From: a virus
IMG/VR virus record: IMGVR_UViG_3300036760_000442
Coordinates: 1-46,186 of that record
DNA length: 46,186 nucleotides
Reading direction: 5' to 3' (one strand)
The translations under genes and the position numbers were made by a program. The notes beneath the pieces were generated by a model, which was not told where the DNA came from, made no database searches, and saw nothing but the letters and a program-made list of their open reading frames with translations. Positions 139 to 27,065 of this stretch are shown piece by piece (position 1 is the stretch's first letter; each line of letters opens with the position of its first letter).

Positions 139-813
139 TTATGGGTGTATTAGGGATAGAAATTCTTCTGCTGTCTTAACATTCTTCTTGAGATTGCAAT
201 CTGGGCACGCCAAACAGATGTTTTCTCTTCCGTTAGAACCCCCTCGTGCCAAGGGAACCATGTGATCCACGTGATAATCACTTAACGGCTTTTCACAATA
301 CAAACATCTGTTATTCTGGGAGAGACGGAGGACTAGAATATCCTCCGCCGTGTGCGATCCTCCGGCAGCTCTTTTTCTAGCTCTTCTGCGAGCAGAACAA
401 GCTTTCTGATATTCTGGAGTTCCACATAAGCCATGTATAATAGTCCTGATGCCTTTTCTAGCACACCCACAGCTTGTGGTGGTTCCGTTTTTTATCCTGT
501 GTGCCTGTATTGTTGTAGTTTCACCGCAATCACAAAGACACAAATACATACTTCTGTTGTTTTCCATTCCTGAAAACTGAAGTACCTTTAGTTTCGCAAA
601 ACGACTTCCTATACGAATAGGTTTCCGCACTGCGTCTGCCTGTCCGCATCCGCAACTTCTACTTCTCCCTTTACGAAGGTTGGCACCATTTACCCGCTTC
701 TTTTTTCCACAAGAGCACACACACTCCCACATAGCCTGCTTAAACTTGTTTGATCCGCTCCGCTTTAATACACGCAAGCGACCAAATTTTCTACCCGTCA
801 AATCCTTAGACAT
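139..813 (-). CDS. HNH homing endonuclease with two Cys-rich DNA-binding modules
   Basis: A 224-residue free-standing homing endonuclease. The N-terminal half holds two tandem modules of the type G-(K/S)-x-F-x-(R/K)-L-x-V followed by CxCDCG/CSCG and a closing SCGC, typical of phage HNH proteins and probably zinc-binding DNA readers. The C-terminal HNH domain has CLYC, the HVDHMVPLARGG core (catalytic His) and CPDCN, giving a two-CxxC zinc cradle. An ATG at 864 in the same frame is possible, but the ATG at 813 has a GGAG SD and gives an 8-nt overlap with the upstream 90-residue gene, so 813 is preferred. It sits as an insertion between head genes and probably spreads itself rather than serving the virion. 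Confidence 0.88.
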   Translation of the reverse strand: MSKDLTGRKFGRLRVLKRSGSNKFKQAMWECVCSCGKKKRVNGANLRKGRSRSCGCGQADAVRKPIRIGSRFAKLKVLQFSGMENNRSMYLCLCDCGETTTIQAHRIKNGTTTSCGCARKGIRTIIHGLCGTPEYQKACSARRRARKRAAGGSHTAEDILVLRLSQNNRCLYCEKPLSDYHVDHMVPLARGGSNGRENICLACPDCNLKKNVKTAEEFLSLIHP

Positions 814-1078
814 TCGTTCTCCGAGAGAGCACAAGCTGATCCTTGGCGGTAATGATCCCTCCAACTTTGAATTGGAGTTTCGAAAGGAACACTACCGTGT
901 CTTTTTCTTCTAGTATTTTCACAGCTCGTTCGACCGCAAGTTCGCGATCTTCCCCGGCCGATAATACTTGCGAGCCGGAGCCTACCAGAAGAACAAATCC
1001 TGAAACCTTTTCTCTCTCACCCTTTGCGTCAAGTCTGCTGAGGGCTTGGGAAGCGTCGGCTCTATTCTTGAACCTCAT
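806..1078 (-). CDS. Hypothetical head-locus protein, 90 residues
   Basis: A 90-residue protein with no family I recognise. It has a charged N-terminus (MRFKNRADASQAL), then a segment rich in Val, Leu and Gly (FVLLVGSGSQVLSAG) and predicted beta strands towards the C-terminus (DTVVFLSKLQFKVGGIIT). The start has only an A/G-rich stretch (AAAGAAAAG) as SD and lies 47 bp after the protease stop. It lies between the protease and the truncated gene at the window edge, so a small head or decoration role is possible. Nothing in the sequence proves it. Confidence 0.65.
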   Translation of the reverse strand: MRFKNRADASQALSRLDAKGEREKVSGFVLLVGSGSQVLSAGEDRELAVERAVKILEEKDTVVFLSKLQFKVGGIITAKDQLVLSRRTNV

Positions 1079-1125: not shown

Positions 1126-2532
1126 CTATTTGGAAGTTTTTTTTTCGGCGGAAAGAACATACTCTCGCAACGAATCGCGCAGAGCCTTCGCCTCATCTCT
1201 CATCTTGGCGATGTGTTCCGTAGGCATAGAAACTGCCGAAGCAGAACCGGACTGCAGCACGGTTGTGTTGGTATTAGAAGGAGCGTTGTCCAAGTGCTCT
1301 CGAAGAGTTCGGGTAATAGTGCTATCCACAGGATCCTTGGTTACGGAGTTTCTCTGATTGCGCAAGCACTCTGGAGCCTTCGCAGACGCGCCGATAACCG
1401 GGCAAGCTTCCTCGAACAGCGCGCACCAGTGCTCATGCAGAACAACCCCTTCAGATTGATCCAGAGCGTTGAACTTGGTTACGCGCTTCTTAAAGCTCGC
1501 GCATAAGGAGTCTGGCCAATAGTTGATTGTTCCGGGACCGCCGATACCAGGACCGGTATAGCGAAGGGCGTTTTCTTTTCCGCCGGTGGAAAGAATTCTC
1601 TTTAGTCCGCCAGTTTCTTCGTCGATTTCTACATAGACCTGCATACGGCCATCGGAAGCATCCGCGCCTTCCTCAGTTAGAGCAGTTACTTCTACTAAAG
1701 TATCCGTCTTTTCTTCCACTTTATCAACCTCCGTGGCTGCTTCTTTGTTGGTATTCACAATGATAGAGTGTCCTCGTAGATTATCAATGGACTCAAGGTT
1801 GATCACTACATCCCCTCGTTCCTTTAGCTCTTTGTGAGCGGCTGTTTCAAGAACGATGGAGTGGGGGTTGGCTGGGTTCTTTACGATGCCCATACCGCTG
1901 AAGGTGATACCTCGAAGTACGCGAGCTACGAAGTGCTTACCAAGGGCTTTTTGTCCCGCCATGATTTTTACGAAACCACCGATCAAGTCCTCTGGAGTAT
2001 AACCAAGAGTGACTGCTTCGGTGCGGGTAATGATTTGATTTCCTACCTTAATGTCGAAATCTTTGAAGAAACACTCCATGCTGACCTTCCATTCGCCGCG
2101 AGTAATCTCATCGGCGTATTCAGGAAAGCGCATCTTGTGAATGACACCGGCAATAGCGATGTCGATGTCCATCTCGTCAGGGTCGCGAGATGTTTCTTTG
2201 AATTCAGCCATAAGCTTCATCGGGTCAAACGATTCTCCGTCCTTATACAGGAAGGCGGAATCATAAATGTGTCCGATCACCTTGGTCTCATCGTGCTCGA
2301 TGTCGATAGCCTTATGGACGATTGTGTTGTGGGCTCGCATCATTTCTGATGGTAAGAAGTGAGCCCCGTTTTTGTTGGTTCCTGCGGAAACCAGAATGGA
2401 ACGAATGTACTGAAGATCCCCCTGGCGTTCATCGGGGAAAGCCAAAACAGCTGCTTTTTCCTGAGCGGCACGTTCTGCCTTATCCAGAACGCTGATTGCT
2501 GCTTCTACTATAACCTTATTTTCTACAGCCAT
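1126..2532 (-). CDS. Head maturation (prohead) protease with C-terminal scaffold-like tail
   Basis: A 468-residue protein. Residues about 65-230 match the pattern of the herpesvirus-assemblin-fold prohead proteases: a catalytic His in DIEHDETKVIGHI (H80), a downstream beta region, then a Ser in GEWKVSMECFF (S151), and the closing GITFSGMGIVKNPANP segment that recurs in these enzymes. Such proteases digest the internal scaffold and trim capsid proteins during head maturation. Residues about 240-468 are acidic and Thr/Glu-rich, ending in a predicted helical stretch (MRDEAKALRDSLREYVL), and could be a fused scaffold. The SD GGAGG overlaps the end of the preceding small gene. Its place after the portal supports the role. 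Confidence 0.78.
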   Translation of the reverse strand: MAVENKVIVEAAISVLDKAERAAQEKAAVLAFPDERQGDLQYIRSILVSAGTNKNGAHFLPSEMMRAHNTIVHKAIDIEHDETKVIGHIYDSAFLYKDGESFDPMKLMAEFKETSRDPDEMDIDIAIAGVIHKMRFPEYADEITRGEWKVSMECFFKDFDIKVGNQIITRTEAVTLGYTPEDLIGGFVKIMAGQKALGKHFVARVLRGITFSGMGIVKNPANPHSIVLETAAHKELKERGDVVINLESIDNLRGHSIIVNTNKEAATEVDKVEEKTDTLVEVTALTEEGADASDGRMQVYVEIDEETGGLKRILSTGGKENALRYTGPGIGGPGTINYWPDSLCASFKKRVTKFNALDQSEGVVLHEHWCALFEEACPVIGASAKAPECLRNQRNSVTKDPVDSTITRTLREHLDNAPSNTNTTVLQSGSASAVSMPTEHIAKMRDEAKALRDSLREYVLSAEKKTSK

Positions 2533-2751: not shown

Positions 2752-3042
2752 TTAACCTTCCTCATCTTCCGTATTCTTACGGAAAACCTTGATTAACAGG
2801 TTAATGTGTTTATCCAAGTCTCGTGCCAATTCCTCATAATCCTGCCTTTCTTCCTTAGCATCCGCCAGTCTTTTCTCTGAGAGTTCCAAGAGCTTGGTCT
2901 GAAGATCAGTATTCTTCGTTTGCTCGGATTTTAACTGGCGGAACAAATGAATAACTATCCCCGTTAAGACCGCAAGAGAAATAGCCACAAGTCCGTATTC
3001 TTTAAGTAGAAGTGTAAGAAAAGTCCAGAACTCGCTGTCCAT
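2752..3042 (-). CDS. Small membrane-anchored coiled-coil protein
   Basis: A 96-residue protein. Residues about 12-34 form one transmembrane helix (YGLVAISLAVLTGIVIHLF). The rest is a charged coiled coil (SEQTKNTDLQTKLLELSEKR and on). The start ATG abuts the stop of the -1 frameshift extension of the upstream gene (TAAATG), which itself supports that extension being translated. The layout (N-terminal anchor plus long helix) is shared by phage i-spanins, XhlA-like proteins and some holins. None can be chosen from sequence alone. Confidence 0.75.
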   Translation of the reverse strand: MDSEFWTFLTLLLKEYGLVAISLAVLTGIVIHLFRQLKSEQTKNTDLQTKLLELSEKRLADAKEERQDYEELARDLDKHINLLIKVFRKNTEDEEG

Positions 3043-3291
3043 TTATCCCCTACTTCTTCGGTAAGCCGCTACAGCCGCCTGGGCGGTAGGGCTTTCCGGT
3101 ACACAGAAGCCATTCTTCTCGTCCAGCAAGAAGCCGGGAGGACATTCTAATGTTCCACGTGGTTCAGCGTTTCCCACATTGGTAATGGGAACACAAGAAC
3201 CAGACTTAGGATCGAATACTTCTTCTGCCCGGCACTGAGGATGGAATAACGCAGGATCTGTTCCTGTCCATTGACCCTCAGTGCTTAGCTT
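3043..3291 (-). CDS. -1 frameshift extension of the Cys-module protein (82 residues, two more modules)
   Basis: This open frame begins in the -1 frame at the end of the 715-residue gene and runs to a TAA that touches the next gene's ATG. It has no ATG and no SD of its own. The peptide contains two more copies of the same module (CRAEEVFDPKSGSC and CPPGFLLDEKNGFC), both with the exact C-x12-C spacing and Asp at +7. That is hard to explain unless it is read as one protein with the upstream frame. Slipping on GGGAAAA gives a 796-residue fusion with nine modules. Confidence 0.8.
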   Translation of the reverse strand, partial: KLSTEGQWTGTDPALFHPQCRAEEVFDPKSGSCVPITNVGNAEPRGTLECPPGFLLDEKNGFCVPESPTAQAAVAAYRRSRG

Positions 3292-3297
3292 TTTCCC
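3232..3297 (-). promoter_or_regulatory. Programmed -1 ribosomal frameshift signal (slippery site plus stem-loop)
   Basis: In the direction of reading: the heptamer GGGAAAA (3297-3291), in phase G_GGA_AAA, so both tRNAs can re-pair after a one-base slip. Then six spacer bases including the zero-frame TAA (3287-3285), then a perfect 9-bp stem GCACTGAGG (3284-3276) with CCTCAGTGC (3240-3232), extendable by one G-U and one A-U pair. The 35-nt loop contains a nested 5-bp hairpin (CAGGA/TCCTG). Slippery heptamer, 5-9 nt spacer and stable structure are the canonical elements of -1 frameshifting. Confidence 0.85.
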
Positions 3298-5432
3298 AGA
3301 TACGCTTTAACCACCTCTCGAGCATGATCGATAAGGTGCTTGGTAGCATCTTCGACAGCCTGGGCAGAGTATCCTTCGATCTTGCTGACCCTCGCGAGAG
3401 AATTGCGGAGACGAGCAGTATCAATAGAAGCGTTATCATAGGAGTCCTTCACGCCTGGGGTGTGATGGAGAAGAGCTCGGCGAGTAGAACTTACGAGAGC
3501 AGGCGGAAACGCCTCATTCGGAAGTTCCTTCGCGTCGATCTTAAACTTCTCGCGGGATCCGGATGCCTTTTCCACATTGATGATTTCATCGAGGTGTCGA
3601 ATAAGCTGAGCTACGGACATGGCGTCCGTAGATGCGGTGCTCTTCGGGCTCTGGGGAGAAGCTCCACTTGGGCGGCTCTTATCCGAGGAATCCAGCGGGC
3701 GGCAGAGCTTATTCACACCGTCCCAAAGGGTTTCTGCTGGGCAGTCCGAAGGAAGCTTTACCTTACCAGCGGGAGCGGGAACAAGTCCCTCATCACCAGC
3801 AGCCTCGGTTTCTCCCTTAGTCTTCTTGCTCGAGTCCAGAGTAATGCACTCCTCGCGATCTGCATTCCAACTGGTGTTAGGAGGGCAATCAGAAGGAAGG
3901 CGCGCGGGGCGGCCAGCAGGGGAGGGCGCGAGGTCACGCTGGGCTGCATCTTCAACAGCGGCCTTCGAAGTAGTAGTTCCGGTCTTCTTGGAAGGATCAA
4001 GAGCTACACATTCGCGCTTCGAAAAATCAAAGAAGGAACCAGGGGGGCACTGAAAACCTGGAGTATCCTTTCGTCCTTCCGGATCAAGGGCAATGATTTC
4101 AGAATGAGAACCCTGAGTCTTGATCGCGTCATAGAAACCCTTGGTCTTGCCGCACTTCTTAGCCTTTGGATCCCATTCCATCCAAGGGGGGCAGGGGCCC
4201 TTCTTCATCTCTGCCATTTCAGTTTCCTCCGCATTCTTGTTAGTATTTTTTACTGGCTGTACAATTTTCGCTTCAAGTAGAAGATCATTTAATACGCCAG
4301 CAAACTCTTCGTTGCTGTTTGCCTTGGCGAAGTTATTAACCTTGATACCACACTTTGATGCGGCCGCCATAATTTTTCGGCGGAGAGAAGCCTTTTCCCC
4401 AACGGTCAGACCCTTGGCCTGGTTGAAGCGCGCCATAGCGTTTCGAACTCGTGCACAGGTGTCGAGCGGGAACTTTCTCTTACCAGGAACCCCAAAGGTG
4501 CTATCCGGTAGAGACTTCCTCTGCTTGGTAGTAATAGGGGCCGCGGTCTCTACAGCAGCCTCTTCAGAGCAACAAACAGAGGGCTGGGACATTACACGAT
4601 CGCGCTCTTCGTCATTCTTCCACTCCCACATGTCCTTCGGGATAACAAAACCGAAGTGTTTGGAGGTATAATCGCCGGCCGAATAATCCTTTACCGCGTA
4701 CTCGCTGACATCATGAGAGTGTGGGTAGGATTCCGATCCAGCGTAGCTCGAAGAAACCGAAGTCTTTCCATCTCCATTCTCATCAACGGTTACCAAGTGA
4801 GTATGCCCGTCGAGAGGATCAGGAGAGGTCATAGCAAGGCGACCAGAGAGGTGGGAGGCAAAGAGTGTTTTAAACTCAGCATCGACGCTCTCGGAAGCCA
4901 TTACGGTGTCCTTGTTTAGAGGAATACATTCTCGGCGGGAAAAATCAAAGAACTGAGAAGGAGGGCATTTGAAACCTACAGGATCTTTTCGTCCTTCCGG
5001 ATCGAGCGCCACTACGTCCTGATGGGTTGCAACTTCTTCCTCTACGTAGTCTGTGTCCGAAGACATCGCAGACTCGTCGCTATTCTCCTGCTCCGCCTGC
5101 TCTAAAGGAACGCAAGTTCGGCTAATAAAAGAAAAAGTTGTACCTTCGGCACAACTTACTGGTTCGTCCATGTCCTCGGCATCCGTAAGAGCGACTTCCT
5201 TATTTTCGGAAGCGGCGGTCTTATCCTTAAGTCCGCGCCATAGATCGCCCTGGTCGTCATTGACGCTACGGGTTTCCGCAGTATGATCAATGGAACCTAT
5301 AGGCAAACACGCGCCGCTCGCGGGATCGCGGCGATGCTGCGGAGGACATTCTTCTACGAGCGTTGTCGCAAAAGACTTCATTTCCTGAAGTAGTTTCTGC
5401 GCCTTGGTAAGTTCTGTATTCTTTGTGGTCAT
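3285..5432 (-). CDS. Large Cys-module head-locus protein (zero-frame product, 715 residues)
   Basis: Encoded between portal and protease. It carries seven modules with an invariant C-x12-C spacing (Cys pairs at 29/42, 94/107, 156/169, 414/427, 462/475, 516/529, 564/577), usually CPP at the first Cys, Asp/Asn at +7, and often Pro-Leu after the second Cys. Between modules 3 and 4 lie a His-rich stretch (GHTHLVTVDENGDG...HSHDV, residues 209-241) and a helical segment, residues 321-364 (CARVRNAMARFNQAKGL...), resembling the DUF6582-type helix found in phage proteins. A related helix (RLRNSLARVSKIEGY) is at 674-688. Modules are linked by low-complexity acidic stretches. The last codons form a -1 slippery site (see the frameshift entry), adding two more modules. 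Function is unknown; a virion or head protein is inferred from position. Confidence 0.85.
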   Translation of the reverse strand: MTTKNTELTKAQKLLQEMKSFATTLVEECPPQHRRDPASGACLPIGSIDHTAETRSVNDDQGDLWRGLKDKTAASENKEVALTDAEDMDEPVSCAEGTTFSFISRTCVPLEQAEQENSDESAMSSDTDYVEEEVATHQDVVALDPEGRKDPVGFKCPPSQFFDFSRRECIPLNKDTVMASESVDAEFKTLFASHLSGRLAMTSPDPLDGHTHLVTVDENGDGKTSVSSSYAGSESYPHSHDVSEYAVKDYSAGDYTSKHFGFVIPKDMWEWKNDEERDRVMSQPSVCCSEEAAVETAAPITTKQRKSLPDSTFGVPGKRKFPLDTCARVRNAMARFNQAKGLTVGEKASLRRKIMAAASKCGIKVNNFAKANSNEEFAGVLNDLLLEAKIVQPVKNTNKNAEETEMAEMKKGPCPPWMEWDPKAKKCGKTKGFYDAIKTQGSHSEIIALDPEGRKDTPGFQCPPGSFFDFSKRECVALDPSKKTGTTTSKAAVEDAAQRDLAPSPAGRPARLPSDCPPNTSWNADREECITLDSSKKTKGETEAAGDEGLVPAPAGKVKLPSDCPAETLWDGVNKLCRPLDSSDKSRPSGASPQSPKSTASTDAMSVAQLIRHLDEIINVEKASGSREKFKIDAKELPNEAFPPALVSSTRRALLHHTPGVKDSYDNASIDTARLRNSLARVSKIEGYSAQAVEDATKHLIDHAREVVKAYLGKS

Positions 5433-5474: not shown

Positions 5475-7340
5475 TTACTTTGGGAAACCCTTTGGTTTCT
5501 TGGGCTTGGTCGCTCCGCCCTTTTTCGGGCGGCCCTCACTTGGGGTACCTGTGGGAGTTCTCTGGATTGGCTGAATCTGCGGTTGCATGTTCTTCAAGCC
5601 TATCTTGATTAGGTTCTCTACGTTGGTCTGGAAGTCTTTGAGATCTTCCTGAGTGACCACGGTCTTAGGAGCCGAGTCAGTAGTATCCTGGGTAGGAACT
5701 GGTCCGGAAGGCGGAAGAGCCTTCGGATTGTACGGAGAACCAATGATGCCAAGAGTTCCATCCTGAACCAGCGGCTTCTCTTGAAGCATGTTGGAAAGTT
5801 CGTTTCCGAAGTCCAAGCCGAGTTTCTCGAGACCGGTTTCGTAGGAGATGATGCGACGATCAATCATGCCCTGAATAACGCTCATCAACATGATCTCGTC
5901 CTTTAGGGCATTCTCATCGAAACGAACATTGGGATAGCGATCAAATCCCATAGCAAGTGCGATCTCTTCGTACTCTCCATCGATCCAACGCTTAACGCAG
6001 CGACGTGCGTAGTTAATCTCTTCTGAGAAAGCCTTAACTGCGGTTTCTACTGCTTTAGCATTGGCAGAAAGGTTTCCATCAATCAACGCGCGAGTGACGC
6101 CCCAGGCCATAGTCAGATCGTCATTTACCTGTGCGAACTTATCTTGTCCCAAGATCTGGCTGATTTCCGGAAAGGTAATCTTCTCGATCTGAAGGGTGTG
6201 ATTCCAGACGATGTCAAAGCCTTTACTGGAAGTATCGAAGAGACGGGCGATGGCATCCAGTTGAGACTGATCGCATACAGGATGTTCGTCATTGCCAATG
6301 GTGATCTTTAGAATGTAATTGGTGATGCCGTCAAGTGTAGAATAATCTGCCTTAACCAGAGCATCTTTGTAGTCCATCGCATCAAAGGCGCGCAGCACAC
6401 GAGGCATCGCATACCGTTCATAATCCTGTTTGCGGTAATCACACTTGCCTACCAACTCAGGCGGGAGCTTTACGGGCTTTCCGGCTTTGATATCCTTTAC
6501 GAGATCCACGGGAAGAGTACGAATGAATTCCTTCTGCTCTTTGGTTTGCTTTCCGGTGTTCTTAAGTAGCGCCCGAAGTTCAGTGAAAGCTTGAGGCTTA
6601 AGATAAGTATCAGTCTGATCGAACAGCAGAGGTCCCTTGATTTCAATTAAGCGGGGATCCAAAATAGAGTATTGAAGAGGAAGGAAAGACTTGGACCAAA
6701 TTTTCTTGGCCGCTGCGTAATCTCTATACCCAATCAAATCCTGCATCTTCGGATCAGTTTTTAGGTTCTTGATCGCTGCCGAAGTTTTAACTACAGCCTG
6801 AAAGTTTTCTGGCTTTAGACGGGGGTCAAACTTTCCAATAGTCTTCAAAGTTCGAACCATTCCCACTCTAAAGAAGTCAAAGAAGATCTTCTCGACCGTT
6901 TCCTTGAAGCCTACCTCACGAACCCACACATCAAAAAAGAGTTTTACATCTGCGTCGTCCGTGTCATTGCTAAAGCCCTTCGCCGCGAAATTAGTGAGCG
7001 TATCAATGGTTGTACCATACGCACCCTTAGAACGATAGAGGGCAAGCGCCTTTGCGTAAGACTTATCTGCTTTGATGGCGGTAGGGTCGGGCTGCCCGGA
7101 CAGGAGGTCGAGATCGATGCGTCGTAAATAGTCTCGGCTGATAACACCTGCGTCAGTTCGAAACTTAATAGGGCTTGGCTGTCCATCCTGACCAGTAAGG
7201 TATGCAAGTTCTCGAACAGGTGTTCCGCCAGGGCCTACGGCTATTTCCATCTCATGGACACCAGGGCGTACTTCGTCGTGGGAAAGAACTTGAGCATGCT
7301 CCAACTTTGCGTTTAAGTTGCTCTTAATTTCTTCCGACAT
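5475..7340 (-). CDS. Portal protein
   Basis: A 621-residue protein that starts 11 nt after the terminase stop with an AAGGAG SD. The portal is the dodecameric ring at the head vertex through which DNA is packaged and the tail is joined. Supporting signs are length, the position directly after the large terminase, and an N-terminal pattern usual in portals (RRIDLDLLSGQPD, then YGTTIDTLTNFAAKGF, then FDVWVREVGF). The central long alpha/beta region ends in helices (VETAVKAFSEEINYARRCVKRW). A Pro-rich C-terminus (PPSGPVPTQD...) ends in a Lys/Pro tail (KKGGATKPKKPKGFPK). No catalytic motif is expected. The identification rests on context plus general pattern. Confidence 0.85.
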   Translation of the reverse strand: MSEEIKSNLNAKLEHAQVLSHDEVRPGVHEMEIAVGPGGTPVRELAYLTGQDGQPSPIKFRTDAGVISRDYLRRIDLDLLSGQPDPTAIKADKSYAKALALYRSKGAYGTTIDTLTNFAAKGFSNDTDDADVKLFFDVWVREVGFKETVEKIFFDFFRVGMVRTLKTIGKFDPRLKPENFQAVVKTSAAIKNLKTDPKMQDLIGYRDYAAAKKIWSKSFLPLQYSILDPRLIEIKGPLLFDQTDTYLKPQAFTELRALLKNTGKQTKEQKEFIRTLPVDLVKDIKAGKPVKLPPELVGKCDYRKQDYERYAMPRVLRAFDAMDYKDALVKADYSTLDGITNYILKITIGNDEHPVCDQSQLDAIARLFDTSSKGFDIVWNHTLQIEKITFPEISQILGQDKFAQVNDDLTMAWGVTRALIDGNLSANAKAVETAVKAFSEEINYARRCVKRWIDGEYEEIALAMGFDRYPNVRFDENALKDEIMLMSVIQGMIDRRIISYETGLEKLGLDFGNELSNMLQEKPLVQDGTLGIIGSPYNPKALPPSGPVPTQDTTDSAPKTVVTQEDLKDFQTNVENLIKIGLKNMQPQIQPIQRTPTGTPSEGRPKKGGATKPKKPKGFPK

Positions 7341-7350: not shown

Positions 7351-10300
7351 TTACTTCTTTTTGCCGGGCTTCGGTTTTAGAAGGGCCGTGGGGCTTGTTA
7401 AGACTTCTCTTGAATGCTGCATACCTTGCAGCATTTTCATGCGGTAGGCGTCTGGGTCGAGCGAGATTTCCAACTTTTCCCGCAGCGCGTCCGGGATGTT
7501 CATCACACTGGCCCCCAATTCAGGATCGCCGATAAAGGTAATTGGGTTTTTTTCTTCGCGAGGAGTTAGAACTCCACCATGGTAAAGAACGCTCTCTGGA
7601 AGTTGCTCAGACCAAAGCATGTCATAGACAGCGCGCGCCGCCAAAATGAAAGAGGTGTATAAGTCCTTCTTCTGCTTGCCGTGGCCTTCTCCCCTGGGAA
7701 CATCAAAGTGATGCTTTCCGGTCGGGGTCTCAGTGAGCTCTATAGTCTGCATCTGCAGCTTCATAGTCTGGATAGTGGACCAGGCTTCTTCTTGTGCGAA
7801 GGTCGGCTCGAAATCCTTGGGTATGTTGGGGAACAGAATGTCTCTGTGCTCCAAAAGACGAAGAGCCGCGAAGTTAGATGTAGAGATGAACTCAGTGGTA
7901 AAGTCGCACATCGTAAGAATGTGACGTCCGGCTTTATACTGATGAACTTCATCTTCAGGATCTAAGATCGGGCCCTTAGGGTTACTTCTTGAGTTTTCTG
8001 CGAGAATGTCTTTGATGGCCAATCCCCCGCCACCGGCATCCATGTAAATAGAAGTTACGTTGAAGGCGTCACTCAAGTCTTCAATGGTCTCTGCCATCCT
8101 TGGGAAGGGCTGCTTGCGTAATTCTATAGCATGAACGACCTTTGCTGGGACACCAACCTCAACAACAGAGATGGCAAATGAGTCTTCGCTTCTGGCCGGG
8201 TCGATACCTAAAACATAAGACTTTCCTGGAATTCCCACAACCTGAGGAGAGAAGGAAGCAGTGCTACACGAATCAAGAAGAGAAGCTTTATAGAACGCAT
8301 CAGTATCAGGAATGAAGGCGGCTTCATACTCCATACGGAACTGAAGGCTGGACATTTCTGCTTTTGCGGCTTCGATGTTATCTTCAGAAAGGAAACCTTC
8401 CGGAAGAAGCCAGTAAGGAACTCTGAACACAGCATACTTATCGTTCCCGTTTCTTTGCTGTTCCTTGTACGCACAATACAACTTGAACATGTGATTGAAC
8501 TGGAAATAACCGGACGAAGTAATGATTATCTGATTTGCGGCCTGGGGCGCGTCGATCTCATCCTGCGTAATCAGACCAAGATCAAGTAGTTTCTTCTGCT
8601 GTCGTAGTCTCCTCACGTTCTCCATTGGTTCAGCCACGGTAGCTGCCATCGGGCGGATAACCATGTTGAAGATGTCTTCGGGAATGTGAGGAAACTCATC
8701 GCAGAGAATGGTGTAAAAGCGGGAACCTCTGATCTTGGAGCCATCGCCTAGAGGAATGCCCTGTATAACCGAAGCGTTACGTCCACCTACGGCTTTGAAT
8801 CTAATGTAGCAGTTATCGGATTGCTGAGTAGGTTTGCGCTCGGTGGCTGCTTGGAATATAGGAGATCTTTGCCAAAGTTTGGTACATTCATCAAACATCA
8901 TCTTGGAGTTGTGGCTTACCAGACCATTGGAAACATAGTTGTGAGTACGATCTACCGTAAAATCGTAAGTATAAGAGAAGCCGTACTCTTTAGAAACCAC
9001 CGTATCAAAAAGAAGGTTACCTTGAACTAAATCCTCTATCTCTTTTATTGCCGGGCAGTTTATACCATTAGTCTGGCAATACTCAAGCATCTTCTTTAGG
9101 AACTCTGACGTAAGGTTATGATTGGGTTTTACCTTCCCCTCTTTGGTAAAGTGCTTCCAAAGACTTAGACTACCAAATCCTTTCTGGGTCTTTCTCAGGG
9201 CGTTGCACACTTCCTCTGCCAAAGGTTTAACGTTTCTAATAACCGCGGAATGGCAACGGTTCGTATCGGTTTTACGAACATACTCCACACCCGCTTCCAG
9301 TATTTTACTTTTCTCAGCACTTCTAAAACCAACCAGTTCTGCAAACAAAAGAAAACTTTTCTTATCGCTTATCTCTAAACTATAGAGCGTGTTTTTTCTA
9401 GAAGTACGTTGTTCAAAAGAGGAGGAAATAATCCCCAGGTTTAGCAACAAAACTTTTACTTCTCTAATAAGTTTGCAAGAAGTGTTGTAAAATCCCACCT
9501 TATATGGGTGTGTAGTTTCAGGGTAAAAGTAAGCACCGCCGTCCGTATCGAACAAGCCCTGAAGATAAGCACAAACATTTTGTTGGGTACTCTGGAGAAT
9601 AATAGAAGGCGTAGATTTTTCTATGGCTGTTTTTCTACCCAAACCAAGTGCGGTTAGAAAACCAAAGAACTTCTTACTCCCCTGGGTTAAATCATAATGA
9701 TTGTCTTTTTTCTGGCGGGAAGCAACCTTACCAAAATACTTCATGGATTGGCGGTCGTATTCTTGAAGGAGGCTGGGATCTCCATTAGTAAAAATGATGT
9801 AGTTTTCGGCAGTTAAACACCCATCACCAGTCAGTAATCCCAAGAAATAGCTCAAGTCGCAATCCAACTCAGACGGGATAAAACAATCACGCGTATTTCC
9901 TACCAAAAAAACCTCGGGAATGAAGCCCCGTAAATCTCGTTCGGTTCCAAAAGCGCGAGAACCTTTGTGGATACAAATCTCATCATCCGTAGTTAGAAAT
10001 GAAAGTTCCCTATAGACTAATTTAGAGCCGCTGTCCAGAACCAACACCCGATGGTCGGGGGCGCCTTCTAGTTCGAACCCCATCTTCGTTTTGATCTTTA
10101 TAGTTCGTTCAGCGGGATTAGTGAAAACGTGCGAACAAGAAGAAAATCCCTCGTGGGAAAGAATAAGACTTGGCGGATCCTTGATTTCATTTACGTACTG
10201 AAAACCCTTATCGGTACAAACCAGAGTATCCCCAACGACACACTGACGAAAAGTAGGGGCAAGAAGACCGATACGATAACCAGGGTATAGCATTGCTTTT

Positions 10301-10515
10301 AGGCAGGCGAATACCGCGTTCAAAAAAGTTTTTCCTGAACCTCGGCACATGATGGACATCACATAACTCTTAAACCACATAGACCGCAAGACTACCTTTT
10401 GAATGTCACTTAGTTCAATAAGCAAAAGGTCTTCTGCGGCTACTTCTGGGTATTCCCGATAAAACTTGATGAGTTCTTCAGAGGCGTGGAGGAACTCGGG
10501 GTCTTCTACTTGCAA
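7351..10515 (-). CDS. Terminase large subunit, interrupted by an intein
   Basis: A 1054-residue precursor that becomes a 609-residue terminase after splicing. Terminase is the ATP-driven motor and nuclease that fills the head. ATPase: Walker A CRGSGKT (residues 57-63), Walker B-like ILCDEF after the intein. RuvC/RNase H-fold nuclease: GIDPARSEDSFAI, MDAGGGGLAIKD and a late Asp in KKDLYTSFILAARA. The intein (residues 92-536) interrupts the LAPTFRQ/S motif, a conserved ATPase element. The frame begins with TTG at 10515. AAGGA lies about 13 nt upstream, and no in-frame ATG precedes a much shorter protein. The upstream gene ends only 2 nt before. Confidence 0.95.
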   Translation of the reverse strand: MQVEDPEFLHASEELIKFYREYPEVAAEDLLLIELSDIQKVVLRSMWFKSYVMSIMCRGSGKTFLNAVFACLKAMLYPGYRIGLLAPTFRQCVVGDTLVCTDKGFQYVNEIKDPPSLILSHEGFSSCSHVFTNPAERTIKIKTKMGFELEGAPDHRVLVLDSGSKLVYRELSFLTTDDEICIHKGSRAFGTERDLRGFIPEVFLVGNTRDCFIPSELDCDLSYFLGLLTGDGCLTAENYIIFTNGDPSLLQEYDRQSMKYFGKVASRQKKDNHYDLTQGSKKFFGFLTALGLGRKTAIEKSTPSIILQSTQQNVCAYLQGLFDTDGGAYFYPETTHPYKVGFYNTSCKLIREVKVLLLNLGIISSSFEQRTSRKNTLYSLEISDKKSFLLFAELVGFRSAEKSKILEAGVEYVRKTDTNRCHSAVIRNVKPLAEEVCNALRKTQKGFGSLSLWKHFTKEGKVKPNHNLTSEFLKKMLEYCQTNGINCPAIKEIEDLVQGNLLFDTVVSKEYGFSYTYDFTVDRTHNYVSNGLVSHNSKMMFDECTKLWQRSPIFQAATERKPTQQSDNCYIRFKAVGGRNASVIQGIPLGDGSKIRGSRFYTILCDEFPHIPEDIFNMVIRPMAATVAEPMENVRRLRQQKKLLDLGLITQDEIDAPQAANQIIITSSGYFQFNHMFKLYCAYKEQQRNGNDKYAVFRVPYWLLPEGFLSEDNIEAAKAEMSSLQFRMEYEAAFIPDTDAFYKASLLDSCSTASFSPQVVGIPGKSYVLGIDPARSEDSFAISVVEVGVPAKVVHAIELRKQPFPRMAETIEDLSDAFNVTSIYMDAGGGGLAIKDILAENSRSNPKGPILDPEDEVHQYKAGRHILTMCDFTTEFISTSNFAALRLLEHRDILFPNIPKDFEPTFAQEEAWSTIQTMKLQMQTIELTETPTGKHHFDVPRGEGHGKQKKDLYTSFILAARAVYDMLWSEQLPESVLYHGGVLTPREEKNPITFIGDPELGASVMNIPDALREKLEISLDPDAYRMKMLQGMQHSREVLTSPTALLKPKPGKKK
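8908..10242 (-). mobile_element. Terminase intein with LAGLIDADG homing endonuclease (445 residues)
   Basis: The intein begins with Cys (CVVGDTLVCTDKGF, block A) and has a block-B-like GAPDHRVLVLDSG, two LAGLIDADG motifs (LSYFLGLLTGDGCL and LQGLFDTDGGAYF), and block F/G ending YVSNGLVSHN. The first C-terminal extein residue is Ser (SKMMFDECTKL). Cys1, terminal His-Asn and Ser+1 are all present, so it should splice. The endonuclease motifs look intact (acidic residue in each), so homing may be active. It sits at a highly conserved terminase motif, a common intein site. Confidence 0.93.
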
Positions 10516-19929: not shown

Positions 19930-20253
19930 CTATTTCTTAGCTGGGTATTTCCCATCATGAAACCGAGCAACAAGCTTCGCTACACGCTTTGCTTGCTTCT
20001 TCGGTATGGCCTCGTTCATGTCAATGCCCGATTTAAGGGCAATGACCATCACGACCGCCAGCACATCCGCCAACTCGTCTCCCAAATCCTCTTTAGTCTT
20101 CTTGGACTTGTTGAGACATTCTGCAGTTTCTCCTACTTCTTCCGTAAGTTTGGAGAGATCAAAAAAGATTGATCTGTTCCATCCATCCGGGGTAAGATCT
20201 AACAACTCTCGGGACATTTCTTCCAAGTTACGAATGTCTAACTCAACACTCAT
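19930..20253 (-). CDS. MazG-like NTP pyrophosphohydrolase domain protein
   Basis: 107 residues with the MazG/all-alpha NTP-PPase core: KLTEEVGETAECLNK and DELADVLAVVMVIALK, giving the E-x-x-E...D-E-x-A-D-V metal-binding pattern. Such enzymes remove pyrophosphate from (d)NTPs. In phage they may trim nucleotide pools or damp (p)ppGpp-like signals. Its start overlaps the FAD oxidase stop by ATGA, so the two are co-translated. AGGAG SD. Confidence 0.8.
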   Translation of the reverse strand: MSVELDIRNLEEMSRELLDLTPDGWNRSIFFDLSKLTEEVGETAECLNKSKKTKEDLGDELADVLAVVMVIALKSGIDMNEAIPKKQAKRVAKLVARFHDGKYPAKK

Positions 20254-21428
20254 CTGCCAAATCTCCTGCCGCTAAAAATACCAGGATCTTTTCCTTCTAA
20301 CATCAAGTCTGCCAACACCTGTCCGATCTTGAAAGTGAAACCTAATCCGTGTGCTGTAAAACCAACAGCGTAATAGATGCTGGGGTTGTGGGGAAGGCTT
20401 CCTACCATGGGATAACCATCCGCTGCAAAACCCATGACCCCAGACCATCTGTAGTCTATTTTCTTTCCGCGCAAAATAGGAAAGTGAGCATGAAGGAAAC
20501 CTTCCAGCTTCTCGTTGATAATAGGATTGACCTCGTCCGAGAATCCTACTTCTCTTTCCACATCTGCGTTTCTAAAGCCGCCAATCAAAACCCTACCATC
20601 TACAAGCTGTCTAAAGTAGTCGAGAACAAAGCTGCAGTAGGACGGCTCAAGGAAAGGAGCAATGGGCTCGGTCAAGATGATTTGACCTCGGGTGGGCGCA
20701 ATCTTGTCCGCAAAGAAGCTATCTAGTTGACCAGACCAAGCATTTGTGGCAAGAACTATGGCGGGGGTGTGAAAATCCAGAAGACGACATCTTACCTTGA
20801 GATCTCCAGCAGTCTGCTCTTCAATAGCAAACACTTCGGAATTCTGGAATACTTGAGTATTGGGACAACGGGCACGCAGATAATTCAGAAACTTCATCGG
20901 GTGGATTTCACCGTCATCTTCATAATAAGCCCCACCGAAAAACCCCTCGCAAAGCATACGCTCTTTTACTTGCTTCTCTGGATACCATTTTACATTGATG
21001 CCTTTCTTTGACAACCGATCTACGGTCTCTCCAATGACGTCTATTTCATTCTGTGTTGCTGCTAGGGTCCAACTTCCCAGGGAGCGGTATTCACAAAACT
21101 CTGTAAGCTTATCCTTTCCTAATTCAGATACGACCAGCTTGTGGTTATCTTCTGTGAACTTCCAAATCTCGCTTGCCTTGTCTTCTCCATAAGCGGAGGC
21201 CATCCGGGAGAAGTGTTCTGTAGATCCGCACGTAATAAACCCAGCATTCCTACCTGAAGCCCCATTTCCGAGGGGGCCCTTGTCTACAATAGCGACCTTT
21301 AGTCTGGGTTCTTTCTGATTAAGCCAGTATGCAGTAGAAAGACCTGCCAATCCTGCCCCGATGATAAGTACATCTACAGCGTGGGAGCTTCTTTGCCCGG
21401 CAGTATCTTGCCAATAAGAAACAGACAT
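20250..21428 (-). CDS. FAD-dependent oxidoreductase, DAO/gamma-glutamylputrescine oxidase type
   Basis: 392 residues. N-terminus: YWQDTA, then DVLIIGAGLAGLSTAYWL (dinucleotide-binding GxGxxG) and LGNGASGRNAGFIT, a strong family mark of the DadA/PuuB/OrdL group. C-terminal elements: TRGQIILTEP, LDYFRQLVDGRVLIGG, WSGVMGFAADGYPMVG, and the closing AVGFTAHGLGFTF. The family oxidises amines or amino acids with FAD. The substrate is not visible. The true start (M22 of the longer frame) has AAAGGA and lies 2 nt after the upstream gene. Very unusual in a phage. Confidence 0.88.
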   Translation of the reverse strand: MSVSYWQDTAGQRSSHAVDVLIIGAGLAGLSTAYWLNQKEPRLKVAIVDKGPLGNGASGRNAGFITCGSTEHFSRMASAYGEDKASEIWKFTEDNHKLVVSELGKDKLTEFCEYRSLGSWTLAATQNEIDVIGETVDRLSKKGINVKWYPEKQVKERMLCEGFFGGAYYEDDGEIHPMKFLNYLRARCPNTQVFQNSEVFAIEEQTAGDLKVRCRLLDFHTPAIVLATNAWSGQLDSFFADKIAPTRGQIILTEPIAPFLEPSYCSFVLDYFRQLVDGRVLIGGFRNADVEREVGFSDEVNPIINEKLEGFLHAHFPILRGKKIDYRWSGVMGFAADGYPMVGSLPHNPSIYYAVGFTAHGLGFTFKIGQVLADLMLEGKDPGIFSGRRFGR

Positions 21429-21429
21429 C

Positions 21430-21660
21430 CTAGTCCTTTCTCTTGTAGCGAACCCCGATGTATGCGGCCCCGAGGGCTCCCCCGGTTCCAATCAAACCCA
21501 CGATGATTTCTGTCCAAGAAAGACCCGAGCGATTGTCCTGGATGATGACTTGGGTTTGAGGCAGAGATCTCTGTTCACGAGGATCCAAAGGCTGTCCTGC
21601 TGTAGAGATTCCGGCAACAGAAAGAGTTAGAAAGAAAGCGAATGCTACGGCGCGCATCAT
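21430..21660 (-). CDS. Small exported membrane protein, about 76 residues
   Basis: Starts MMRAVAFAFFLTLSVAGISTAGQP, a signal peptide with a plausible cleavage after AGISTA. The C-terminal hydrophobic segment (IIVGLIGTGGALGAAYIGV) ends in a basic KRKD tail. This matches a periplasmic protein anchored by one helix. SD AGGAG. It may be a lysis accessory or spanin-like protein. No homology claim is made. Confidence 0.6.
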   Translation of the reverse strand: MMRAVAFAFFLTLSVAGISTAGQPLDPREQRSLPQTQVIIQDNRSGLSWTEIIVGLIGTGGALGAAYIGVRYKRKD

Positions 21661-21665
21661 AACTC

Positions 21666-21944
21666 CTAAATGTACTTGATTTTGATTCCAGTAATCAGAC
21701 TTAACCAACGTCGAAGATCTTCCATTTCCTCTTCCCACTTGATGTAAGCCAATCTATGGTCGTTTGTTTCTTCGAATACGGTATAGAGAATGTTGTCTAT
21801 TCGTACCACATCGTCCCAGAGGTAGTCCTTCAGATCCTGTATATCCTTCTCAGACCAATTACAGAGTCTAACTATTTCTTCCATTCCCCCGAGGAATTCC
21901 TGCCTCTGGCGGAGAACCCAAGTCGGGTTGACTACCGCTTTCAT
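21666..21944 (-). CDS. Hypothetical helical protein, 92 residues
   Basis: M21 of the longer frame is preferred (GGGAGGGAGA SD, starting MKAVVNPTWVLRQRQ). The rest is acidic and helical (ILYTVFEETNDHRLAYIKWEEEMEDL...). It overlaps the upstream Rossmann-like gene by about 77 nt. No family assigned. Confidence 0.58.
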   Translation of the reverse strand: MKAVVNPTWVLRQRQEFLGGMEEIVRLCNWSEKDIQDLKDYLWDDVVRIDNILYTVFEETNDHRLAYIKWEEEMEDLRRWLSLITGIKIKYI

Positions 21945-22317
21945 TCTCCCTCCCAACCTGCTCCCAAGGCAGATAGTACTCGTGGATCCCTTGGGTGTAG
22001 GCATCTGATTTTAGATTCGACAACGGGAAGTCTTTTCCTTTCAGGGAGAACTTACCCTGAACGAAATCTACGACTATCTCGCAACTTTCTCCATTGTAAG
22101 GGCTCGCTGGACTACAAATAGCATGAGCACGATAAGTATTTATAACGGAGGGGTCAGAAAAGAAAAGGCCCGCCCCGCTAACACAAAGACGGATAAGAAG
22201 GTCTTGGGCAGCAGTTCCCATTCCTACGATAAGGATCTGCCGTCCTTGTAATTCTTCTCTCCCGTAATGGCCACGAAGGGCGCCACGTAGAAAGCTAAAG
22301 ACTGCTTGGCTGTTCAT
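21868..22317 (-). CDS. Rossmann-like nucleotide-binding domain protein, 149 residues
   Basis: Residues 22-56 read LQGRQILIVGMGTAAQDLLI..., an NAD(P)-binding beta-alpha-beta of the type found in the C-terminal domain of Glu/Leu/Phe dehydrogenases (VxVxGxGxVGxxLA). The catalytic domain of such enzymes is absent and the rest is unlike them. The protein is thus a lone, truncated domain. It may be a remnant or a regulator. Its start overlaps the end of the HNH gene at 22295 by 23 nt. Confidence 0.62.
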   Translation of the reverse strand: MNSQAVFSFLRGALRGHYGREELQGRQILIVGMGTAAQDLLIRLCVSGAGLFFSDPSVINTYRAHAICSPASPYNGESCEIVVDFVQGKFSLKGKDFPLSNLKSDAYTQGIHEYYLPWEQVGRENESGSQPDLGSPPEAGIPRGNGRNS

Positions 22318-22960
22318 TTTCTTTGTCCTGGTGCAGTTCCACGTTCCAGTAAGCCAAATCTAAGAAGTTCACCCACTCTTTGTGGGGAATAAAAGACAGA
22401 GGAACATTTAGGGTAGGGTGCCAAACAGGCTCCTTTGGTGTCTTGAGCATCTTCCAACCAAGCTCCGTAACCAGACGATCTTTTTTCTTGGAATTACACT
22501 TGAAGCACGCACAGACAATGTTAGACCAAGTAGTCTTTCCACCACGAGATCTTGGGACAACGTGATCCAAGTTGAGATGGTTCTTTTCTATCCACTTGAT
22601 TGCTCGCTTTTCATTCGGCGGAGCAATACCGCAGTATTGGCAAGTATAGTTATCTCTTTCAAAGATGTTCTTGCGGCTAAAGCGAACTTCCCGCCTTGGC
22701 AACTTATCGTAGAAAAGAAGTACAATCACGCGCGGAATTCTGATCTTCACACTTGGAGAGCATATGAACTCATCTGCATCTACTTCTACCATCTTCTGGG
22801 AAACATCGGCCCAATTATTGAAGTCATAGGATTGATAGTTTCCGTCTACTACTTTGGCTTGTCCTTGGTAAAGCAAGGAAATAGCTCTCTTGACGGAGGT
22901 TACCTGAACCGCCATCCAGTTTCTATTGAGCACCAAAGTATTGGAGTTCAGCTTGCCCAT
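22295..22960 (-). CDS. HNH endonuclease
   Basis: 221 residues from the ATG at 22960 with GGGGGAG SD. The N-terminus (NTLVLNRNWMAVQVTSVKRAISLLYQGQAKVVD) and the HNH core (CQYCG, LNLDHVVPRSRGGKTTWSNIVCACFKCNSKKKDR) match the large bacterial/phage HNH group with VTSVKRA and DHVxPRSRGG. It is probably a homing-type or DNA-processing nuclease. Intact catalytic His-Asn residues. Confidence 0.88.
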   Translation of the reverse strand: MGKLNSNTLVLNRNWMAVQVTSVKRAISLLYQGQAKVVDGNYQSYDFNNWADVSQKMVEVDADEFICSPSVKIRIPRVIVLLFYDKLPRREVRFSRKNIFERDNYTCQYCGIAPPNEKRAIKWIEKNHLNLDHVVPRSRGGKTTWSNIVCACFKCNSKKKDRLVTELGWKMLKTPKEPVWHPTLNVPLSFIPHKEWVNFLDLAYWNVELHQDKENEQPSSL

Positions 22961-23004
22961 TAACTCCCCCTCGCTAGTAGAATAATACGACAAAAACGAA
23001 AGAC

Positions 23005-23355
23005 TTACAAGTAGCCCTTGTAACCAAGAATACCTTCAACGAAAACGGTACCCGTGGCTGTAATAAGCGATATGGAATGCACTGTGTCAAAATCCATAGT
23101 GAAGATACCCAAACCCGCTACTTTGATGTTATCCCCAGGAATCATTCCCACAGAGGCGGCTGCTACTTGCCCATCCACTCGGAAATAGAGAGAGTTTTCG
23201 GTATTCGTGTTACGGATCACTACACGCTTACACGGGGGGTCTAGATCTATAGTGGTAGCAGTCGAACTAATGGTTCCCTCGAAATACTTTACTACGGAAA
23301 AGCCAACTTCAGAAAACAGTTCCGGAAGTCCACCTTTATGTAGCATGTTAGACAT
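23005..23355 (-). CDS. Probable structural protein of the tail-fibre locus, 116 residues
   Basis: A beta-rich small protein (SVVKYFEGTISSTATTIDL, then VVIRNTNTENSLYFRVDG, VHSISLITATGTVFVEGILGY). The pattern of a short strand-rich domain with Gly/Asn turns is typical of virion proteins. It follows the broken fibre remnant. AGGAG SD. No family assigned. Confidence 0.6.
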   Translation of the reverse strand: MSNMLHKGGLPELFSEVGFSVVKYFEGTISSTATTIDLDPPCKRVVIRNTNTENSLYFRVDGQVAAASVGMIPGDNIKVAGLGIFTMDFDTVHSISLITATGTVFVEGILGYKGYL

Positions 23356-23386
23356 AATCTAATCTCCTGTTCTGTTTATTTCCATC

Positions 23387-23813
23387 TTACGCAGGTTTGT
23401 CTTTTATAATGTCCGTATTATCCATCGCCACCGCATCAAAGGCTACATCTATTCCGCCTTCGGTAACCGCATCACACACGAACGAACTTCCTTGCATCCC
23501 TCGGGTATTAGTTATGCCTAACCCAAACCAGTGGACCAGGTTGTTAGCATAACCGTAAGCTCCAGAATCTGGGTTGTGTTCTAGCTTAGACGCCATTACA
23601 GCAGCTCCGGCGTCCATAGCAACATTCCAAATAGTCACGGAGTATGGCTTTGGAAATACTATCTACGTAGCCTTTAGTTGCCAAATCAGATGCAGAAACA
23701 GGGGTGATGCCGCCGATCGTGCCTGTAAAGGCCCTTGTTCCGGAAACTAACGAATATTGCGTATGATTATCGTCGTGGAAGTCTTGCAATAGCTGCGGCG
23801 AAGGCAGCCCCAT
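23387..23813 (-). pseudogene. Broken tail-fibre C-terminal remnant
   Basis: Two frames read as one fibre tail. Frame 1 (ends around 23655) has LLQDFHDDNHTQYSLVSG..., GTIGGITPVSASDLATKGYVDSISK, the standard fibre repeat (HTQY...TKxYVD). Frame 2 starts PYSVTIWNVAMDAGAAVMAS and runs on to KDKPA. The join needs a +1 shift at TCCAAAGCC. Frame 2 could only start on a GTG without SD. The N-terminal part of the original fibre is missing, and the 93-residue gene overlaps its front. Confidence 0.65.
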
Positions 23814-24048
23814 CATCAATCTGTGAGTTGAGTGCTTCATGTATTGACTCAACTTCAGCCATACGAGAAATGGTATCTGATAGTTTCTTCTCAATGTTTG
23901 AGCGATATTCAGCAGATAAATCTTGTGTAAGCATTTCAGTGAAATTCACTCTATCAAGATTATAGTGAAAGTGTTCAAATTGTCTTGACTGAATTGCTGT
24001 TGCAAGTTGATCGTATTTGTAGTTTGCGTTTATTAGATTGTAGTCCAT
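23767..24048 (-). CDS. Small helical tail-locus protein, 93 residues
   Basis: Starts MDYNLINANYKYDQLATAIQ with AAAGGA SD. A helical, charged protein of a type I recall next to phage tail genes. The end overlaps the fibre remnant in another frame. Function may be in fibre assembly. This is an inference. Confidence 0.62.
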   Translation of the reverse strand: MDYNLINANYKYDQLATAIQSRQFEHFHYNLDRVNFTEMLTQDLSAEYRSNIEKKLSDTISRMAEVESIHEALNSQIDDGAAFAAAIARLPRR

Positions 24049-24062
24049 AATTTTTTCCTTTG

Positions 24063-26284: not shown

Positions 26285-26628
26285 TAGGTCTCCACCATGG
26301 TTGTTGTCGACACCTGTCCACCCGACCTATTGATATCGGTTGTTAAAGTCTGAATGGCAACACCGTTCTCGTCATACTGAATCTCTATAGTTTGTTCCAC
26401 TTCGTTTTGGGCGTTACGGATAATTTGGGTAGTCCTGATGAGAGTACCTCCCGGTGCAGTAAGAATTTTGACGTCGGTTACTTCATTGTTAGAATTACGG
26501 AGAATTTCGGTGGTAGCCCCCTCAGACAAATTATGGACTAGAGTATCTAAAGTTTCATGTTCTCCCTCGGTTATACCCGAACCTCCGAATGCCCCTCCTG
26601 TAGGGAAGAACAGTGATAGTTCCGCCAT
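26284..26628 (-). CDS. Small tail-locus structural protein, 114 residues
   Basis: Begins MAELSLFFPTGGAFGGSGIT, then Thr/Asn/Glu-rich beta repeats (TEILRNSNNEVTDVKIL; RTTQIIRNAQNEVEQTIEIQ). It reads as a short fibre or connector protein. It starts with GGAGAG SD. Immediately upstream (transcriptionally) of the tail fibre, with an overlap of one base. Confidence 0.65.
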   Translation of the reverse strand: MAELSLFFPTGGAFGGSGITEGEHETLDTLVHNLSEGATTEILRNSNNEVTDVKILTAPGGTLIRTTQIIRNAQNEVEQTIEIQYDENGVAIQTLTTDINRSGGQVSTTTMVET

Positions 26629-26682
26629 AGCACACTCTCCGTTTGCTAGTTTCTTGTACTAGTTCGTGAAAAGGGTTCCGCA

Positions 26683-26802
26683 TCAGTCACGAATACTCAC
26701 AAAATAGCGCTTGCGGGGTCCGCGAGGAGGGTACTTATACTTTCCGTAAACCCAACACCCCGCGGTGGTTAACTCTTTAGAAATCTCGACCTGGGGCCGC
26801 AC
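26683..26802 (-). CDS. Possible 39-residue ORF (no SD)
   Basis: GTG start; product MRPQVEISKELTTAGCWVYGK... then a Pro/Arg-rich stretch (YKYPPRGPRKRYFVSIRD). The amino-acid make-up looks protein-like, but no SD or ATG supports it. It overlaps the 28-residue ORF by 26 nt. It may be a remnant. Confidence 0.3.
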   Translation of the reverse strand: MRPQVEISKELTTAGCWVYGKYKYPPRGPRKRYFVSIRD

Positions 26803-26863
26803 CAGTTGTAGTAACAGTGGCGGTAGCTCCAGTTAAAATTTGGTAGTTCCTTAGGATGAACAT
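26777..26863 (-). CDS. 28-residue peptide gene
   Basis: A strong AGGAGG SD lies 7 nt before ATG, and the peptide is MFILRNYQILTGATATVTTTG plus a short tail. The SD lies in the last codons of the preceding 63-residue gene, one base away from its stop. The Thr/Ala-rich end suggests a short export or membrane peptide, but no homology is seen. Confidence 0.55.
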   Translation of the reverse strand: MFILRNYQILTGATATVTTTGAAPGRDF

Positions 26864-26864
26864 G

Positions 26865-27056: not shown

Positions 27057-27065
27057 TGACTACCT

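What the first reader, a model, noticed from the sequence alone, without database searches (positions are those of the whole stretch)
3043..5432. Programmed -1 frameshift adding two more Cys modules to a nine-module head-locus protein
The 715-residue product ends in G_GGA_AAA, then a 6-nt spacer with the stop, then a perfect 9-bp stem. The -1 frame continues 82 residues to a stop abutting the next ATG, has no start of its own, and carries two further modules with the same C-x12-C spacing as the seven upstream modules. Sequence signal and protein continuity support each other.
Basis: partly seen in the sequence, partly recalled or inferred. Interest (0 to 1): 0.88.

Follow-up and report, generated by a model that had tools for sequence, protein, structure and literature searches.

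The report
Lineage-conserved ribosomal frameshift in phage head gene
In a group of uncultivated large phages, the gene next to the DNA-entry portal carries a built-in signal that makes some ribosomes slip back one base and add an extra tail of cysteine-hairpin (and sometimes iron-storage-like) domains to the protein, and all 21 relatives examined keep this signal.

Summary
The window gene (3285-5432, -) ends G_GGA_AAA AGC TAA, followed by a 9-bp stem (11 bp with G-U). The -1 frame continues 82 codons to a TAA touching the next ATG, with no start codon of its own.

I recovered 20 other distinct loci (19 IMG/VR, 1 MAG contig). All 21 have an in-phase X_XXY_YYZ heptamer (GGGAAAA in 9, AAAAAAA in 12) at the very end of the main ORF, with the stop 0-1 codons later. 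Wherever the contig continues, the -1 frame encodes two C-x12-C modules (16 invariant residues; median pN/pS 0.18). Background for such heptamers in these genes is 0.18% per codon. The heptamer type changed at least three times on the tree, so slipperiness rather than peptide is conserved. No in-frame or extension-less member was found. This excludes sequencing error and decay; reinitiation and transcriptional slippage are unlikely.

The extension's far end varies: nothing, a small 'ERCI..SAIAIC' domain, or a Dps-like ferritin domain.

Best reading: programmed -1 frameshifting makes a minor, C-terminally extended isoform of a multi-hairpin head-locus protein. The mechanism type is known in phages; gene, domains and lineage look new. 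Frameshifting, and the protein's presence in virions, remain unmeasured.

The parts
3285..5432 (-). Main (0-frame) product, 715 aa plus stop: N-terminal helix, seven C-x12-C hairpin modules, a His-rich stretch, a DUF6582 domain and a C-terminal helical domain
   Evidence: 20 homologues aligned
3291..3297 (-). Slippery heptamer G_GGA_AAA in the 0 frame
   Evidence: 21/21 homologues have GGGAAAA or AAAAAAA here in phase
3285..3290 (-). 6-nt spacer AGC TAA with the 0-frame stop
   Evidence: stop 0-1 codons after the heptamer in all 21
3276..3284 (-). 5' arm GCACTGAGG of the putative stimulatory stem (extends to 3274 with G-U and U-A)
3232..3240 (-). 3' arm CCTCAGTGC of the stem (extends to 3242); lies on the Pro-Gln-Cys codons of the first extension module
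   Evidence: same helix in L041, L043, L059, L006, another register in L003, L110 and others
3043..3291 (-). -1-frame extension, 82 aa plus stop (3043-3045), two C-x12-C modules; no start codon of its own
   Evidence: purifying selection
2752..3042 (-). Next gene, small protein with an N-terminal hydrophobic stretch; its ATG abuts the extension's stop
   Evidence: counterpart with its own RBS in relatives
5475..7340 (-). Portal protein, immediately upstream
   Evidence: phrog_2833, weak; Gordonia phage portal, 19% over 62%; 32 relatives
7351..10515 (-). Large terminase with an intein/homing-endonuclease insertion (context)
1126..2532 (-). Conserved gene between the frameshifted gene and the capsid genes, likely prohead protease/scaffold by position and N-terminal sequence (context)
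   Evidence: phrog_16389, unknown function; protease assignment is inference

Best explanation
The gene just downstream of the portal is expressed as two nested proteins. Most ribosomes stop at the TAA and make the 715-aa form. A minority, at G_GGA_AAA (A_AAA_AAA in many relatives), slip back one base by tandem P/A-site tRNA slippage, helped perhaps by the stop codon nearby and, at the weaker GGGAAAA sites, by a stem about 6 nt downstream. They read 82 more codons and make a form of about 796 residues with two extra disulfide-type hairpin modules (in relatives also a small Cys/helix domain or a Dps-like ferritin domain). Strongly supported by comparison: the signal and the selected -1-frame protein. 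Inferred: that slippage is the minority outcome and its ratio matters; that the protein is a head or head-assembly component; and that the extended form displays or carries an extra function (surface binding or cargo), as with frameshifted Ig-like or T7 10B extensions.
For: Heptamer in phase and stop 0-1 codons later in 21/21 distinct loci, against 0.18% background. Heptamer type switched at least three times on the main-protein tree, so slipperiness, not peptide, is conserved. -1-frame extension alignable in 20 loci with 16 invariant residues, including all four Cys; synonymous sites near saturation while pN is 0.06-0.22 against the window, median pN/pS 0.18. No start codon in the -1 frame before the first Cys in most loci. 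GGGAAAA sites carry excess structure (mean z -2.39 against codon-synonymous shuffles) and AAAAAAA sites much less (-0.34), Mann-Whitney p = 1.6e-5, not corrected for phylogeny. Window stem 7/1000, L041 4/1000, L059 6/1000. Head locus: portal upstream, major head protein downstream in relative L131.
Against: No protein, reporter or ribosome-profiling data. Covariation is weak: one compensatory pair, shuffles not exceeded. The stem changes register between subgroups and is not significant in most AAAAAAA members, so a stimulator is not universal. No isolated phage relative exists in the collection searched, so nothing can be read off a virion proteome. AlphaFold confidence is low (pLDDT 65 and 53).
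Confidence: 0.9

Rival explanations
1. Transcriptional slippage: the phage or host RNA polymerase adds an A in the A-run, giving an in-frame mRNA fraction.
For: 12 of 21 members have 7-8 consecutive A's; polymerases can slip on such runs, and one extra A gives the same frame.
Against: L004, L007, L010 and L017 have only GGG AAAA (four A's) and the window five, too short for usual polymerase slippage (own knowledge). The phase of the heptamer relative to codons is exact in all, which polymerase slippage does not need. Excess downstream structure at GGGAAAA sites.
Confidence: 0.04
2. The extension is a separate cistron translated by reinitiation or coupling after the TAA.
For: Termination and the -1 ORF overlap, a layout that can couple cistrons.
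Against: In the window, L024, L043, L049, L059 and most others there is no ATG/GTG/TTG in the -1 frame between the preceding stop (or the last 25 codons) and the first conserved Cys. Start codons occur after the site in only four members (L006, L016, L019, L050), and four more have a GTG 13 codons upstream; they are not conserved. Coupling would not need a slippery heptamer at 21/21 sites.
Confidence: 0.02
3. Sequencing/assembly error or recent frameshift mutation (decaying pseudogene tail).
For: A one-base indel in the A-run would look the same in a single genome.
Against: Same arrangement in 21 divergent loci from separate assemblies; strong purifying selection in the -1 frame; no in-frame relative among the loci found.
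Confidence: 0.01
4. Frameshifting is real, but the protein is a non-virion assembly factor (like lambda gpG/gpGT) and the isoform ratio tunes assembly. (This competes only with the functional part of the best explanation.)
For: -1 product of a head/tail-locus gene; long, mostly disordered beads-on-a-string protein; Cys pairs could stay reduced in the cell.
Against: It lies between portal and head genes, not between tail tube and tape measure. Cys modules and Dps domains are more typical of display or cargo than of chaperones (inference).
Confidence: 0.25

Closest known systems
Frameshifted Ig-like C-terminal extensions of phage capsid/tail proteins (phage A2, T3, SPP1; reviewed in PMC5009743 and PMC3185693)
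   Same: A C-terminally extended isoform of a structural-locus protein made by programmed frameshifting; the extension is a modular, exchangeable domain.
   Different: No Ig domain: C-x12-C hairpin modules, sometimes with a Dps-like or ERCI..SAIAIC domain. The host gene is the one after the portal, not the major capsid or tail protein. Frameshift direction and site are uniform across the lineage, whereas Ig-like extensions vary between -1, +1 and in-frame (PMC5009743).
T7 gene 10A/10B capsid frameshift (PMC3185693)
   Same: -1 frameshift near the gene's end gives a short C-terminal extension on a minority of copies.
   Different: Not the major capsid protein, which in relative L131 is a separate gene (phrog_2522).
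Lambda gpG/gpGT tail-assembly chaperone (PMC5009743)
   Same: -1 slippage near the end of the upstream ORF giving a low-abundance fusion.
   Different: Gene position and domains differ; neither lambda product is in the mature virion, and nothing here links the extension to a tail protein.
CBM_14 (peritrophin-A) chitin-binding domain, PF01607
   Same: Short CP.G..FD....C stretch matches profile positions about 27-49; summed match 3.9e-10 in the main protein and 1.1e-4 in the extension.
   Different: Only two Cys per module, not six; only the hairpin half of the profile is matched.

Membership tests
Canonical programmed -1 ribosomal frameshift site | X_XXY_YYZ heptamer in the phase of the upstream ORF | tested here: met
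   21/21 loci; background 0.18% per codon
Canonical programmed -1 ribosomal frameshift site | -1-frame ORF past the stop under protein-level selection and lacking its own start | tested here: met
   median pN/pS 0.18; no usable start in the window and most loci
Canonical programmed -1 ribosomal frameshift site | Downstream stimulatory RNA structure at 5-9 nt | tested here: inconclusive
   Window, L041 and L059 strong (7, 4 and 6 of 1000 synonymous shuffles), L110 z -4.64; most AAAAAAA members near chance; little covariation
Canonical programmed -1 ribosomal frameshift site | Trans-frame protein actually made | not testable with these tools
   needs reporter, ribosome profiling or mass spectrometry
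CBM_14 / peritrophin-A chitin-binding domain | about 50-60 aa domain with six conserved Cys | tested here: not met
   two Cys per module, profile positions 27-49 only
Phage Ig-like frameshift extensions | Ig-like fold in the extension | tested here: not met
   No Ig family matched; model shows two beta-hairpins (moderate confidence)
T7-type major-capsid frameshift | Upstream ORF is the major capsid protein | tested here: not met
   Separate major head protein in relative L131:12185-13249
Lambda G/GT tail-assembly chaperone frameshift | Located between tail tube and tape-measure genes | tested here: not met
   Located right after the portal, in the head locus
Virion structural protein | Present in purified particles | not testable with these tools
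   no isolate or proteome among the records searched

The most novel reading that the evidence does not exclude
The -1 frame behind this slippery site is a lineage-wide, frameshift-metered cargo slot on a portal-adjacent head protein. The slip rate sets how many copies carry an extra cargo, and the cargo is exchanged in evolution (hairpins only, a Cys/helix domain, or a Dps-like ferritin that would put a DNA-protecting or iron-handling protein into or onto the head). Site and stimulator are co-tuned: a weak heptamer goes with a strong stem, a strong A7 heptamer with little structure.
Probability: 0.3. Interest if true: 0.78.

Novelty: new variant of a known kind. Interest (0 to 1): 0.62.

Why it matters
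Frameshifted extensions on phage structural proteins are known case by case, with Ig-like domains moving between frames. Here one site is kept through a whole lineage of uncultivated large phages (records up to about 297 kb), while its heptamer, stem and appended domains turn over. That makes it a natural series for how slippery-site strength and stimulator trade off and what isoform ratio selection maintains, and it links a Dps-like ferritin to a phage head locus by fusion in two members. Ordinary gene callers would end these proteins at the TAA, so the extension is probably missing from annotations.

Tried and rejected
Direct searches for the main protein among phage records and, as a single sequence, in viral contigs found nothing; the route that worked was portal first, then alignments. 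DUF6582-only hits (L062-L091, L111-L124) were checked for Cys modules and a similar junction: none has the hairpin module, and the two heptamers near an ORF end (L074, L083) are isolated. An archaeal host, suggested by a Volactin-type actin and an Altiarchaeales MAG contig, was considered; bacterial-type DnaX/HolA clamp-loader genes speak against it and no rRNA lies on the viral records, so the host is left open. Rfam gave no known frameshift element. PDB sequence search gave no significant relative. Covariation as proof of the stem was tried and is not sufficient. Fold search was not run because the models are of low confidence. A trans-frame translation with a four-letter codon word was tried and gave the wrong (+1) frame; the extension was read directly instead.

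Full report
Observation. The gene at 3285-5432 (-) encodes 715 aa and ends CTG GGA AAA AGC TAA. The heptamer GGGAAAA (3297-3291) is in the phase X_XXY_YYZ. Six nucleotides later begins a stem GCACTGAGG/CCTCAGTGC, 9 perfect pairs, extendable to 11. The -1 frame continues 82 codons and its TAA abuts the ATG of the next gene. It has no ATG, GTG or TTG before its first Cys. All Cys modules, seven before and two after the shift, have exactly twelve residues between the cysteines.

Context. Upstream lie the portal (phrog_2833 weakly, and Gordonia phage portals at 19% identity) and a large terminase carrying an intein with homing endonuclease. In a 297-kb relative (L131) the same order continues to a major head protein (phrog_2522). 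The window is a 46-kb virus record. No phage isolate in the collection is related at the frameshifted gene. The host is unknown.

Relatives. The portal found 32 IMG/VR loci; the main-protein alignment added more, including one contig in an Altiarchaeales MAG. With exact duplicates removed, 20 loci besides the window contain the junction. Every one has an in-phase heptamer, GGGAAAA in nine (window included) and AAAAAAA in twelve, with the stop next (L049) or one codon later (all others). In 20 of the 21 the contig reaches the Cys modules, and they are in the -1 frame in every case; L007 ends 13 codons into the extension. The background rate of in-phase heptamers elsewhere in these ORFs is 26 of 14,673. 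A search with the extension itself returned only this family, none in frame. Contigs cut before the junction (L001, L005, L008, L009, L011, L012, L014, L015, L020, L023) are untested.

Selection. Extensions align with 16 invariant residues, including all four module Cys. In the module core synonymous differences are near saturation while pN is 0.06-0.22 against the window; median pN/pS over 189 pairs is 0.18. On a maximum-likelihood tree of the main proteins the heptamer type changes at least three times (weak deep branches, and the branches with high support alone force only one). The peptide at the site alternates between Gly-Lys and Lys-Lys while slipperiness remains.

RNA structure. Against shuffles that keep the extension's amino acids, the downstream 75 nt of GGGAAAA sites are more structured than expected (mean z -2.39, range -1.38 to -4.64) and those of AAAAAAA sites hardly (mean -0.34); Mann-Whitney p = 1.6e-5. 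The sequences share ancestry, so the p-value overstates the evidence. Two stem registers exist: GCACTGAGG with CCTCAGTGC (window, L041, L059, and with mismatches L043, L006) and GCGGRUGG with CCAYCCGC or UCAUCCGC (L110, L002, L003, L013, L024, L034). Helices are 94-96% paired and fall to 27-53% when slid (the structure was read from these sequences, which favours it), but compensatory change is minimal, so covariation does not prove the stem.

What is appended. In the window and L017 the extension ends soon after the two hairpins. In most others a small domain ERCI..VK......KS.AIAICRS follows. In L010 and L049, which sit apart on the tree, a ferritin/Dps-like domain is fused in frame with the extension (PF00210, 1e-21 and 1.4e-18). 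In L006, L050, L059 and L110 a Dps-like ORF lies directly downstream as a separate frame. L016, L019 and L058 carry a charged insert of about 50 codons between the shift and the hairpins.

Mechanism. The evidence fits tandem-slippage -1 ribosomal frameshifting. Polymerase slippage is unlikely with only four or five A's (L004, L007, L010, L017, window). Reinitiation lacks start codons. Error or decay is excluded by conservation. What the protein does is inference: a beads-on-a-string of disulfide-type hairpins (each C-x12-C modelled as a beta-hairpin, low to moderate confidence) in the head locus suggests a virion-associated decoration or internal head protein whose minor isoform shows extra modules, comparable in logic to frameshifted Ig-like or T7 10B extensions (PMC5009743; PMC3185693). 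A non-virion assembly factor remains possible (about 0.25).

Novelty. Phage frameshift extensions are a known kind; the gene, the domains, the lineage-wide constancy and the Dps fusions are not described in the papers searched, which are an open-access subset. Filed as a new variant of a known kind.

Noticed in passing
L010:10296-11174 and L049:6190-6936: A Dps/ferritin-like domain is fused to the frameshift extension in two members well apart on the tree, and is a separate ORF right behind it in L006, L050, L059 and L110.
   Followed up: partly
window 36892-38220 (-): Actin-like protein matching Pfam Volactin (1.1e-63), also present in the records of relatives L006, L010, L013 and L017.
   Followed up: partly
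window 7351-10515 (-): Large terminase interrupted by an intein with a homing-endonuclease-like region.
   Followed up: no
window 39159-40415 (-): LAGLIDADG_2 endonuclease domain joined to a weakly matching nucleoside deoxyribosyltransferase-like region; an HNH-like ORF lies at 139-864 (-).
   Followed up: no
window 41577-43279 (-): Adjacent bacterial-type clamp-loader genes (DnaX-like ATPase and HolA-like delta).
   Followed up: no
window 20250-38220 (-): Unusual metabolic/enzymatic cargo: FAD-dependent oxidoreductase (DAO), patatin-like phospholipase, M24 and M16 peptidases, IMP dehydrogenase, SLT transglycosylase.
   Followed up: no
L026-L030: Relatives with a 43-46% identical portal lack the Cys-module gene; an ORF of about 420-450 codons without the modules follows the portal instead.
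   Followed up: partly
L016, L019, L058 (extension start): Insert of about 50 charged codons between slippery site and first hairpin; the stop is TAG and no strong stem is present.
   Followed up: no
L110 (WJJK01000045.1): A member of this phage lineage is binned in an Altiarchaeales archaeon MAG; possibly misbinned, host unresolved.
   Followed up: partly
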